A DNA stretch of 64,000 nt from Acinetobacter sp. ANC 4173. GTDB lineage: Bacteria > Pseudomonadota > Gammaproteobacteria > Pseudomonadales > Moraxellaceae. Positions within the stretch are counted from its first letter, which is position 1; each line of letters begins with the position of its first letter. Positions 23,080 to 31,075 of the stretch are shown piece by piece. Under the pieces are notes generated by a model. It was given only the letters and a program-made list of their open reading frames with translations, searched no databases and was not told the origin of the DNA. Location: contig NZ_SJOF01000002.1 in assembly GCF_004331255.1 (NCBI RefSeq), positions 124,001 through 188,000 on the forward strand. The letters are read 5' to 3'. A program made the position numbers and the translations under genes.

Positions 23080-23922
23080 CTATTGGTCGTCTTGCTCATC
23101 TTCGGACAGCTCCATGGTCGAGAGTGAGATATGTTCTGGATTGAGTAATGGCAAAGCTTTAGTTTCGAATTCACTCAGCACACGCTGTCGCTTATTAGCG
23201 GTTAATTTAATTCTGGTTTGCTTCAAACTAGACTTTGCAAGTAAGCCAGGATTCGCAAAAGTATCTGGGAAATAATCCAAACCAATACAATACTCATAAG
23301 CAGCTGTGAGTTCAGATAGTACTTTTCCAGCTTGAACTTGGGCTCCACGATCAATAATTCCCTTAATCAGACTCACTACATCTTTACGTGTGATTTCTAC
23401 CGCAGCTTTTTCACCAATAGAACTTACCACATCAACATATAAGGTATGTCTAGCTTCAATTTGTCCTTTGATTGCTCTACTGCCTTTAACTATTTTCTTT
23501 TTCTTACTTTTTTCATCAAAAAGATGCTTATCTTCAATTACATTCTCTAAATATAAATCAACAACATTTTTGACAGACAACACCTCCGATGTAACCACTT
23601 GTCGTATCTTTTCTTTAACTTTAGAGTTTTTTCGTTGCGTAATTGGACATACACCCTGCGCACGCAATAATTTTAACTTTTGAAGCTCTACCCTAGCCTC
23701 AGCCAAAGATAGTGCTGGATAATGACCAAGAGTGATCGTTTTAAGCGAATTATCTATAGGGTACGATATTTATATTTAAAACTTTTAACCCCCTGTCTTA
23801 CCACAGCTTACCCTCAAACCTGAATGTTCACCCACATCGGTTTTATCTTTATCACCCACTTTCATGTTGTCAATTGCGCGCGCAGATAAAGCAACTTTTT
23901 TAGTTTCAACCTTTTCCAACAT
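23080..23922 (-). pseudogene. P4-type tyrosine integrase remnant (frameshifted, no catalytic domain)
   Basis: Read across three frames, the minus strand gives an integrase N-terminal domain. ATG at 23922 starts MLEKVETKKVALSARAIDNM and continues to GLRVSCGKTG. One extra base in a five-G tract (about 23800) shifts to VKSFKYKYR, and a second shift near 23750 leads to IDNSLKTITLGHYPALSLAE, the DUF4102 pattern of P4-like integrases. The core-binding domain follows to about residue 200, then the frame ends in an acidic tail (ELSEDEQDDQ) at 23080. The catalytic domain with R-H-R-Y is absent. It is the trace of a lost integrative element beside mutS. Confidence 0.8.
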
Positions 23923-24080: not shown

Positions 24081-24129
24081 AAAATTTAACCTATATTTTA
24101 TACTATTGAAACTTAAGGATTTCATATAC

Positions 24130-26766
24130 ATGAGCTTGCAAGACATCATAGCCAATATTGATTCACATACCCCTATGATGCAACAGTACTTAAAAGTCAA
24201 AATGCAGCATCCTCATGCCTTAATGTTTTATCGTATGGGCGATTTCTACGAACTTTTTTTTGATGATGCACATAAAGCAGCCAAACTGCTCGGCATTACG
24301 CTTACCCACCGTGGTAAAACCAATGGCAATCCAATCCCAATGGCTGGCGTGCCCTTTCATGCCGCAGAAGGTTATCTCGCACGTCTAGTCAAAAAAGGCG
24401 AAACTGTCGTAATTTGCGAGCAAATTGGTGAAGTTACAGGTAAAGCCCCTGTTGAACGTGGTGTTGTGCGTATTCTCACCCCTGGTACGCTTACAGATGA
24501 TGCCTTACTCAATAGTCATCAATCTTCTAATTTAGTCGCACTGTGCTTACAACAAAACCAAATTGGTATTGCCCTACTTGACTTAAGTGCAGGCATTTTC
24601 AAAGTTCAACAACAAGATTTCAAGCTAGAACAATTGAGCATCGAACTGGCACGTCTTATGCCAAGTGAAATTCTGGTCGATGAAGATATTGTGGACCCCA
24701 ATATTTTAGAACACGTTAAAAAACAACTCGACTGTCCTGTAACTAAGCGTCCCAATGTTGACTTTAATTTAAATAATGCACAAAAAACCTTATGTGATCA
24801 GCTTGGCGTTTCAACACTTTCTGGTTTTGGGATTGATCATCTACCTTTGGCAAAAGCTGCTGCTGCCGCGCTGATTCATTATGCCAAAGACACGCAAAAA
24901 ACCGCATTACCGCATATCCGCAGTATTCAGCTAGAACAAAGCAGCGACTTTATAGCGCTCGACCCTGTAACACGCCGCAACTTAGAAATTGTGGATCCGT
25001 TATTCGAACATGGGACGTCATTATTTCAACTCATCAATGACTGCCAGACCGCTATGGGAAGTCGGTTATTAAGCCGTACCCTCATGCAACCGCTGCGGGA
25101 TACTGCTCTACTTGATGCACGTCTTGACGCCATTCAGGCTTTTATTGATGGCTATCATGAATCTCCTATTCGCTTAGTCCTGAAAGAAATTGGTGATATT
25201 GAACGCGTGCTAAGCCGTGTGGCTCTTGGCAGTGCTCGTCCACGTGACCTAGTACAATTACGCCAAGCGAGCGCTCAACTTCCATTTTTACGCCATGCCT
25301 TAAACCCAATTGTTGTCAGCCAACAATCTAAACTGGTTCAACAATTAAATGAGGAATTAGGTGATTTTAATGGTTTATACCAGCGCCTCCTTGCCGCAAT
25401 CGTAGAAAATCCACCTGTACTGTTACGTGATGGCAATGTTATAGCGGAAGGTTTTGACAGTGAACTGGATGAATTACGCAAAATTCGTGACCATGCTGGG
25501 CAGTTCCTGATCGATCTAGAAATTAAAGAACGTGAACAATCTGGGATTCCTACCCTAAAAATTGGCTATAATCGTGTCAGTGGCTATTACATCGAACTGA
25601 CGCGTGCTCAGGCCGAACAGGCACCCGAACACTATATTCGTCGTCAAACCCTCAAAAATGCCGAACGCTATATCACACCAGAATTGAAAAGTTTTGAAGA
25701 TAAAGTGTTATCCAGTGAATCTCGTGCATTAGCACGCGAGAAAATGCTGTTCGAAATGCTATTGGAAGAGCTACGTCAAGATATTGCAAATTTACAAGTC
25801 ATGAGTGCCGCCATCGCTCAAATTGATTTACTCAGTAACTTTGCACATCAAGCCCGTTTAAGAAACTGGTCTCGACCCGAATTTAGCCCAGAAACTGGCA
25901 TCAAGATTATGGCAGGTCGTCATCCCGTGGTAGAGGCATTAAATAAAACTGCATTTACCCCAAATGACACACATTTGGATTATGCACATCGCATGGCGAT
26001 TATTACGGGTCCAAATATGGGCGGTAAATCGACCTTTATGCGTCAAACCGCGCTCATTAGTTTACTGGCTTATTGTGGTAGTTTTGTCCCTGCACAATCA
26101 GCCATATTAGGTCCAATTGACCGTATTTTTACCCGTATTGGTTCTGCCGATGATTTATCAACAGGCAAATCGACCTTTATGGTGGAGATGACCGAAACTT
26201 CGCAAATTCTGCATCATGCCACCAACCAATCCTTGGTGCTCATGGATGAAGTGGGTCGTGGAACCAGTACCTATGACGGTTTATCACTGGCTTGGGCTTG
26301 TGTTTTAGACCTGAGTAAACGCGTGAAATGTCTATGTCTGTTTGCCACCCATTATTTTGAACTGACTGAACTGAGTAAAGAATCGGGTATTTACAATTAT
26401 CATGTCAGTGCCAAAGAACTGAATGGCAATTTGATTTTGCTGCATAAAGTACAACAAGGTCCTGCCAGTCAGAGTCATGGTCTACAAGTCGCAAAATTAG
26501 CGGGTATTCCTGCCAATGTGATTAAAGAAGCACAAAACCGTTTAAAAATTTTAGAACGCCAACAGCAACAGCATGTCAATACGGCGGTGCAACGTGATTT
26601 ATTTGCACCTGCCGTGCAAGCGGAGCCTAATATTATTGAACGTGTGGTTGAAGTGGAAAAAGTATCTCCTGCTCTGGAAATTTTAAAAGCGTTAGATGTC
26701 GACAACCTAACCCCACGTGAAGCTTTACAGCATTTGTATCAACTGAAAGAACAATTAGAAAGTTAA
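24130..26766 (+). CDS. mutS: DNA mismatch repair protein MutS
   Basis: 878 residues from the ATG at 24130, which follows AAGGA by 10 bases; an upstream TTG in frame adds eight residues and is less likely. The mismatch-reading motif G-D-F-Y-E is at residues 37-41 ([12 protein letters not shown]). The ATPase has Walker [14 protein letters not shown] near residue 625, [15 protein letters not shown], Walker [17 protein letters not shown] and [11 protein letters not shown]. The C-terminal tail for dimer/tetramer contacts is present ([14 protein letters not shown]). MutS binds mispairs and recruits MutL. It looks intact despite the adjacent integrase relic. Confidence 0.98.
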
Positions 26767-29935: not shown

Positions 29936-29979
29936 TACGGAGTATCTAGTGAAATACAATCATTCATAAATACTCCGTA
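29936..29979. repeat. 10-bp inverted repeat after the MocR gene
   Basis: TACGGAGTAT (29936-29945) and ATACTCCGTA (29970-29979) flank a 24-base loop, just before the end of the minus-strand gene at 29992. It may be a weak terminator for that gene. The rest of the 310-base gap at 29682-29991 shows only short broken frames such as MKSWLYLHLEDVLKFDESFY, which I cannot assign. Confidence 0.5.
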
Positions 29980-29991
29980 ACGCCATAATTA

Positions 29992-30527
29992 TTAGAAGTT
30001 ATAATTTCTATCATTACCTAGTTTTGAAAATTGTGCTTCCATATCGTTAAATGCATCAGTAAAGCCATCCAGTGAAATTTTATTCTCAATCAGTTGTTTT
30101 TTATTATTCTGGAATCGTGTGAAAGCATAATTCCCACCTTTAAATTGTTTAATCAGTTCGGAACCATTTCTAAATAATCCTTCACGCTCTTGGAGGATGT
30201 CTTGGTTATCTATATGAATAAAAGCTGGATTATCTTTTAAATGCTTTTCACCAATATTAACAATATATTGATGATTAACATGCAAAATAGAAATAGGTCC
30301 TTTACTCATAACACAGGCTTTCGTGTCTTCAAATACTTTGTATTGACATTTTATTTTCCAGCTAGCGCGGCCGAGCAATTTATTCTCTATTAAGTCAATG
30401 TCGGCATTATTGTTTAATTTAGCATTAACTTTTAAAATTAAAGAAGAAATTTGATCTTCAGATGCATAGGTATTGTTAGTAATAACTGAAGTTAGGATAA
30501 AAAAGGATAAAAAAAAAATTTACGCAT
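29992..30527 (-). pseudogene. Putative secreted protein, out of frame at a 10-base homopolymer
   Basis: An ATG at 30527 starts MRKFFF but runs out of frame in ten T (minus strand; 30509-30518). If the tract were one longer or two shorter the frame would give MRKFF, LSFFILTSVITNNTYA and then SEDQISSLILKVNAKLNNNA, i.e. a perfect signal peptide and a mature protein of about 157 residues ending GNDRNYNF. No other good start lies in the mature frame (only a TTG at 30378). The mature part (HVNHQYIVNIGEKHLKDN; LFRNGSELIKQFKGGNYAF) matches no family I know. It is either phase-variable by slippage, recently inactivated, or a sequencing error. Confidence 0.6.
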
Positions 30528-30690
30528 AATGAAATCCCCAATATTTTAAAAAAGCTATAATAATCAACATTTTTTTGATATCTATTGCTGAATGTATCAT
30601 TTTTATGAAATAAGTGTGTTTTTTTACAAATTAATTGAAATATGTTGGCTGTTACTCGTTTTTTTACTCAAACTGCCCTCAAGTTATAGA

Positions 30691-31075
30691 GGAATGAGAT
30701 TCTACTCACTCATCCGTATAGCCATGAAAATCTTAGTGGATACCGAATTACAAAAAATTTTAGACCAATACAAACATCATATTTTAAGTCGGTTCATGAT
30801 TCACCGAGCACCACAAAGTGAAGGACAAACTTTAACAATTAAGAAGCAACATTGAACCCAAATGGATAGTCAAAATTTATCACAGCAGTTTCTAACTGCT
30901 GTCAAAAAGTCGAATGCTGAGCCAGATTTAAAGAGCCTATAAATTCCTACTTTCCATGAGGTTCGAGCGCTTTCGATATTTATATAAAAGAAAGCTGGCA
31001 AGTCTGCATCGCAATTTAGGGGTCATACCACAGGAAAATGCCTGAAGTTTATGCATCTAGGCACAAAATTTCCTG
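30691..31075 (+). pseudogene. Tyrosine recombinase (phage integrase) C-terminal remnant
   Basis: One reading frame, broken by stops at 30853, 30940 and 30985, reads VDTELQKILDQYKHHILSRF, MIHRAPQ, LSQQFLTAVKKSNAEPDLKS, PTFHEVRALSIF and KKAGKSASQFRGHTT. H-E-V-R at 30955-30966 and G-H-T-T at 31021-31032 are the second catalytic arginine box and the histidine box of phage-type integrases. The frame slips just after GHTTGK, where the tyrosine would come. The N-terminal part is not visible. It is the dead tail of an integrase different from the one at 23080. The remaining bases of the 830-base gap show no gene. Confidence 0.7.

What the first reader, a model, noticed from the sequence alone, without database searches (positions are those of the whole stretch)
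29992..30527. Ten-base homopolymer in a signal peptide: possible phase-variable secreted protein
The minus-strand gene starts at 30527 with MRKFF and goes out of frame inside ten T. With 8 or 11 T it would encode a clean signal peptide ending TYA and a mature protein of unknown family. This is the classic layout of ON/OFF switching by slipped-strand mispairing, here in the OFF state, in a segment next to integrase relics.
Basis: partly seen in the sequence, partly recalled or inferred. Interest (0 to 1): 0.55.

Follow-up and report, generated by a model that had tools for sequence, protein, structure and literature searches.

The report
Conserved out-of-frame signal peptide gene
A gene for a small exported protein in Acinetobacter looks broken by a run of ten Ts, yet related species and a phage contig carry the same break while the protein stays under selection, which suggests that the cell reads across the break, probably by RNA polymerase slipping on the run, instead of switching the gene on and off.

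Summary
In detail: the minus-strand ATG at 30527 runs into ten T (30509-30518) and stops after 11 codons; a signal peptide and a 156-residue mature protein follow in another frame. The ON/OFF reading is not what relatives show. The six closest sequences (window, four other Acinetobacter species, one IMG/VR phage contig) share the same out-of-frame state and the same 13-base A/T tract (A3T10 or A4T9); four slightly more distant relatives are in frame and lack the tract. In the six, the downstream frame is strongly conserved (172 codons, no stop, omega 0.094, 2dlnL 172.8; 0 of 2000 neutral simulations free of stops). The 17 signal-peptide codons after the tract, which precede every ATG/GTG/TTG of that frame, are selected too (omega 0.19, 2dlnL 13.5). 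So it is neither pseudogene nor sequencing error. The protein is probably made by a change of register at the tract, most likely RNA-polymerase slippage on nine to ten T, as in Shigella mxiE. Ribosomal -1 frameshifting, DNA-level switching and a non-canonical start are weaker rivals. The product is a periplasmic-type protein with an IalB/MotY-like fold. It is a new member of a known kind; no expression was measured.

The parts
30528..30685 (-). leader with presumed promoter and ribosome-binding site (GGGGA at 30535-30539); 30685 is where similarity to A. tandoii and to the phage contig begins
   Evidence: blastn extents; last 60 nt before the ATG 93-100% identical among the five chromosomal broken-form sequences, 10 pairs. 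Promoter and ribosome-binding site are read by eye, not tested
30492..30527 (-). short ATG-started frame, 11 codons and stop (MRKFFFYPFLS)
   Evidence: 11 codons in all six broken-form sequences
30509..30518 (-). T10 tract, proposed slippage site (A3T10 here; A3T10 or A4T9 in the six)
29992..30519 (-). second frame, 175 codons and stop: rest of signal peptide plus mature protein
   Evidence: selection
29995..30462 (-). mature protein (156 residues) after the presumed signal-peptidase site NNTYA-SEDQ
   Evidence: translation; cleavage site judged by eye and by in-frame relatives such as MRKKLFF...NNTHA-SEDR; fold
29936..29979 (-). inverted repeat, arms 29970-29979 and 29936-29945 (10 bp), at the end of the stretch shared with A. 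tandoii
   Evidence: read by eye; recognisable with changes in the aligned broken-form sequences; extent

Best explanation
This is an expressed gene for a small exported (periplasmic-type) protein whose start codon is fixed in the wrong frame and which is read by a change of register at a conserved run of nine to ten T inside the signal peptide. Most likely RNA polymerase slips on the run, so that a part of the transcripts joins the ATG to the second frame while the others give only an 11-residue peptide; the out-of-frame start would then act as a standing damper on the amount of protein. Shown here: the shared break, the shared tract length, purifying selection on the second frame including its signal-peptide part, and the lack of a usual start codon before that part. 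Inferred: that the register change happens, that it is transcriptional, and that reduced output is what is kept.
For: Same break and 13-nt tract in 6 of 6 sequences of the clade, in 4 species at the fdxA-side locus, at another place in A. tandoii and beside an integrase on a phage contig. Omega 0.094 with 2dlnL 172.8 against 1, no stop or gap in 172 codons, 0 of 2000 neutral simulations without a stop; the four in-frame relatives have omega 0.112. Seventeen signal-peptide codons that precede every ATG/GTG/TTG of their frame: omega 0.193, 2dlnL 13.5. Only 1 of 64 long A/T tracts of the genome has this layout. E. coli RNA polymerase needs at least 7 T and favours T over A (PMC6260861, abstract and one section). 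mxiE and spa13 of Shigella are expressed this way (passages).
Against: No RNA, protein or read data. Only six broken-form sequences, all from one clade and probably one event. U_UUU_UUU in the same place could serve the ribosome instead. Wobble positions within the tract are unchanged, but given 26 of 73 two-fold codons varying elsewhere this is not significant. A codon tree of nine sequences without support values did not separate in-frame from broken forms, unlike the nucleotide tree.
Confidence: 0.62

Rival explanations
1. DNA-level phase variation: replication slippage changes the tract length and turns the protein on in a minority of cells; sampled genomes happen to be OFF.
For: T10 in the 5' part of a gene for an exported protein is the usual layout; a 5' poly(A) tract in inlA changed about 1000 times more often than point mutation (abstract of PMC2831843); selection on the protein would continue if the gene is sometimes ON.
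Against: Identical tract length and state in 6 of 6 over 0.40 substitutions per site, one of them on an IMG/VR metagenome-type contig (name prefix recalled); the only difference within the tract is a substitution.
Confidence: 0.15
2. Programmed -1 ribosomal frameshifting on U_UUU_UUU within the run gives the same protein.
For: The heptamer is in frame in both A3T10 and A4T9; U_UU.U_UU.U is among motifs that shift above 0.10% in E. coli without stimulator (passage of PMC4066793).
Against: No notable RNA fold after the site in the window sequence (z -1.09, 29 of 200 shuffles as good); the run is longer than the heptamer needs; the site is only a few codons from the start.
Confidence: 0.13
3. Translation starts in the second frame at a non-canonical codon (AUU or AUC) after the tract, without any frame change.
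For: Would explain selection on the second frame; AUU or AUC codons are present there (read).
Against: No ATG/GTG/TTG before codon 31-48 of that frame in any of the six; such a product would lack the positively charged start of the signal peptide; the ATG and leader stay conserved.
Confidence: 0.07
4. Pseudogene or sequencing error.
For: The frame break, taken alone.
Against: Separate records share it; omega 0.094, no stops, neutral simulations never match.
Confidence: 0.03

Closest known systems
Shigella mxiE and spa13 (transcriptional slippage on a T run joins two frames)
   Same: Two frames joined by a register change at a run of T; the long product needs the slip (passages of PMC1088944 and PMC5009743).
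   Different: There the run lies deeper in the gene (58 codons into spa13); here it is at codons 4-7 inside a signal peptide and the unslipped product is an 11-residue peptide. Slippage is measured there, inferred here.
Citrobacter rodentium tssM1 (poly-A transcriptional frameshifting)
   Same: A gene that looks interrupted at a homopolymer is expressed by slippage (abstract).
   Different: A11 near the end of a large gene, with both length forms needed; here T9-T10 near the start.
Phase-variable surface genes with 5' homopolymers (inlA; Bifidobacterium pilus G-tracts)
   Same: 5' tract and frame break in an exported-protein gene (abstract of PMC2831843; passages of PMC9187656).
   Different: Those vary in length between strains or cells; here the length is the same in 6 of 6 sequences.
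IalB (Bartonella, 3dtd) and MotY (2zf8) folds
   Same: Predicted fold: Foldseek E 7.3e-5 for 3dtd; VIA Z 10.7 over 116 residues for 3dtd, 9.8 for 8z5n and 8.8 for 2zf8.
   Different: 16% and 12% identity; the window protein scores 20.0 against Pfam's cut-off of 22.1. No function follows from the fold.

Membership tests
Genes expressed by programmed transcriptional slippage | A or T run of slippage-prone length between two frames of one gene | tested here: met
   T9 or T10 in 6 of 6; unique layout among 64 tracts of the genome
Genes expressed by programmed transcriptional slippage | Break conserved between species while the downstream frame is under purifying selection | tested here: met
Genes expressed by programmed transcriptional slippage | mRNA of mixed tract length and full-length protein | not testable with these tools
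   needs RNA and protein
Phase-variable gene (slipped-strand mispairing) | Tract length differs between strains or lineages | tested here: not met
   13 nt in 6 of 6, one sequence per species plus one phage contig; variation within a species was not testable
Phase-variable gene (slipped-strand mispairing) | Mixed tract lengths within one strain | not testable with these tools
   no reads
Programmed -1 ribosomal frameshifting | Slippery heptamer in the initial frame | tested here: met
   U_UUU_UUU follows from the sequences
Programmed -1 ribosomal frameshifting | Stimulating structure downstream | tested here: inconclusive
   z -1.09 for the window sequence only; not all known sites have one
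IalB (PF06776) | Score at or above Pfam's gathering cut-off | tested here: not met
   20.0 against 22.1 bits for the window protein; 17 of 26 aligned relatives match at E 0.01 or better, best 6e-5, their scores against the cut-off not shown
IalB (PF06776) | Fold of the solved member 3dtd | tested here: met
   model with mean pLDDT 83

The most novel reading that the evidence does not exclude
Selection actively keeps the start one register off: an exported protein found on phages carries a built-in polymerase-slippage damper in its signal peptide, which sets a low, possibly condition-dependent output and has been retained in the chromosomes of five species and on a phage contig. If tract length were neutral, many length changes would be expected over this divergence (inference from the roughly 1000-fold figure in the abstract of PMC2831843, and 0.40 substitutions per site), yet none is seen among the six.
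Probability: 0.33. Interest if true: 0.65.

Novelty: new member of a known kind. Interest (0 to 1): 0.5.

Why it matters
Gene finders are likely to call such a gene broken or to start it too late (inference; I read no annotation of these copies). If the reading is right, an apparently dead gene for an exported protein is alive; it offers a polarised case, with in-frame relatives that lack the tract, of how a slippage site arose and was kept; and it warns that a homopolymer in a signal peptide is not by itself evidence of phase variation.

Tried and rejected
Pseudogene and sequencing error: rejected. Start at a later TTG shared by 5 of the 6: rejected because codons before it are selected (17 signal-peptide codons, and the 44 codons before that TTG with omega 0.226, 2dlnL 25.1); note that three of the six have a start codon of their own within codons 18-44. 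Extra wobble conservation inside the tract: not informative. Integrase of phage contig L107: at E 0.01 no tblastn match in the window or in ten other loci tested, so nothing shows that this prophage left the integrase scraps. NCBIfam, PADLOC and two of the three Pfam families gave single-member hits only, taken as chance. Plasmids: two relatives, 41.2% and 28.5% identity. Phages collection: none at E 1e-3. Viral contigs: two with the protein, the same two with the alignment, one with the start-region pattern. Start-region pattern with one mismatch in 173 genomes of the genus: 42 genomes, 48 listed places, 8 of them exact and all at known loci; the mismatched ones were not followed. Codon tree of nine sequences (no support values) mixes in-frame and broken forms; the nucleotide tree of ten does not. 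In the viral fold library the best match is an uncharacterised protein of Vibrio phage VH7D (E 6.4e-6); it was not followed. Paper searches seen as listings only; in their listed titles none concerns this gene, and no wider claim of absence is made. Papers seen in passages or abstract are named where cited.

Mended here: number of loci (ten, not nine), the wording on codons 18-44, the description of L108, the fold search and the codon tree told more fully. Odds for the best explanation and the rivals are stated in full here; the odds of the novel case were set at 0.33 instead of 0.35 because the codon tree leaves the single origin less certain.

Full report
Observation. On the minus strand an ATG at 30527, preceded by GGGGA at 30535-30539, opens a frame that enters ten T at 30509-30518 and stops after 11 codons. 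A second frame is open from the TAA at 30520-30522 to the TAA at 29992-29994; it holds a hydrophobic stretch ending NNTYA-SEDQ and a 156-residue mature part. The tract is the only homopolymer of 9 or more in the window. The genome holds 64 distinct A/T tracts of 9 or more, four of length 10; eight were also read by eye. A scripted test for a short ATG frame, a tract and a long second frame without a nearby ATG/GTG/TTG found 1 of 64, this one.

Relatives. The second-frame protein was sought in 175 genomes of the genus, one per species; 38 have a match at E 1e-3. Nine of them, the window's own included, reach 80% identity. Five of these nine have the break: the window genome, an unnamed species (G011), Acinetobacter sp. 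ANC 4910, sp. ANC 4178 and A. tandoii (names through). Four (sp. A7.4, A. kanungonis, A. bouvetii, A. kyonggiensis) read in frame from the same ATG and have no run of 9 T. Relatives of lower identity were not classed one by one. Of two viral contigs with the gene, L107, with an integrase gene about 0.8 kb on, has the broken form. In L108 the match to the window begins only within the signal peptide; the DNA before it differs and an ATG at position 50 is in frame, so it was left out of the six. The tract is A3T10 in three of the six and A4T9 in three; the sum is 13 in all.

Genealogy and place. In a nucleotide tree of ten sequences the four in-frame ones form a group with support 99.2/95, and A. 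tandoii pairs with the phage contig (99.8/100). A codon tree of nine sequences, without support values, mixes the two kinds. A single origin of the break is therefore likely, not certain. Four species, the window's included, share the place between a ferredoxin gene (fdxA-like) and a MocR/PdxR-like regulator gene (both names recalled from the sequence); A. tandoii has the gene elsewhere. Similarity to A. tandoii and to the phage contig covers only 751 and 783 aligned bases, from 30685 to 29935 and 29904: leader, gene and a 10-bp inverted repeat. Between window and ANC 4910, dS is 0.25 for this gene and 0.15-0.23 for three neighbours; for ANC 4178 it is 0.52 against 0.21-0.54 for five neighbours. 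The gene has thus aged with its surroundings in those species.

Selection. In the six broken-form sequences the 172 codons from the end of the tract align without gap and without stop. Omega is 0.094; fixing it at 1 (kappa scanned over eight values) costs 2dlnL 172.8. In 2000 neutral simulations along the same tree (0.40 substitutions per site) none kept all six free of stops. The four in-frame relatives give omega 0.112. By region: 17 signal-peptide codons 0.193 (2dlnL 13.5), codons 18-44 0.224 (13.2), codons 45-172 0.055 (159.0). In the second frame the first ATG, GTG or TTG is codon 31 to 48 after its upstream stop and is not at one place in all six, so the 17 signal-peptide codons lie before any usual start, and they are under protein-level selection.

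How it works. These facts call for a change of register at the tract, or a rare start codon. RNA-polymerase slippage fits best. E. coli polymerase slips on 7 or more T and favours T over A (PMC6260861, abstract and the section on minimal length); the run is longer than a ribosomal heptamer needs; no notable fold follows it in the window sequence. In spa13 of Shigella such slippage gives 25 to 30% extended product, and mxiE works alike (passages). Ribosomal -1 frameshifting at U_UUU_UUU would give the same protein and is not excluded. Constant tract length in six sequences speaks against DNA-level switching, since a 5' poly(A) tract in inlA changed about 1000 times more often than point mutation (abstract of PMC2831843). 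That the constancy reflects selection for reduced output is inference.

The protein. Two cysteines (C52, C63) are invariant in 26 of 26 aligned sequences. All 26 match one PHROG family of unknown function, phrog_11231. The AlphaFold model has mean pLDDT 83. The closest solved folds are IalB of Bartonella (3dtd: Foldseek E 7.3e-5, VIA Z 10.7, 116 residues, 3.3 A), a chain of the LPHT ring (8z5n, Z 9.8) and MotY (2zf8, Z 8.8). The window protein misses the Pfam IalB cut-off. I take it for an envelope or periplasmic protein that occurs on phage contigs and is kept by hosts. Its activity is unknown, and the IalB fold implies no role in invasion here.

Verdict. The phase-variation reading is not what the relatives show. 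The likely reading is a conserved gene that depends on a register change at the tract, most probably transcriptional slippage: a new member of a known kind that awaits RNA and protein evidence.

Noticed in passing
window 23080-23706 (-): Fragment of a tyrosine integrase (Pfam Phage_int_M, 27.4 bits against a cut-off of 27), next to mutS and about 6 kb from the gene.
   Followed up: partly
window 30718-30852 (+): 45-aa stretch with one weak match (34.9%, E 3e-3) to a plasmid protein annotated as phage integrase Arm DNA-binding domain; none in the phage collection.
   Followed up: partly
window 29936-29979: 10-bp inverted repeat just after the gene, at the end of the stretch shared with A. tandoii; it could be a terminator or a cassette border.
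   Followed up: partly
L107 769-3111 and L108 50-1275: Both viral contigs hold the gene near the contig end held, L107 before an integrase gene, L108 beside phage-like genes; this would fit a lysogenic-conversion gene (gene roles other than the integrase judged by eye).
   Followed up: partly
L022 (G097), start of the homologue: A distant relative (42%) also has T9 inside its signal peptide, but in frame as read by eye; a second, separate long T run at this place.
   Followed up: no
window 24254-24261 (+): T8 run within the mutS reading frame (24106-26766), in frame; the mismatch-repair gene itself carries a slippage-prone run.
   Followed up: no
L002 (G000:C18:1626-1991): The same genome has a second, 33% identical relative on an 11.6 kb contig.
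   Followed up: no
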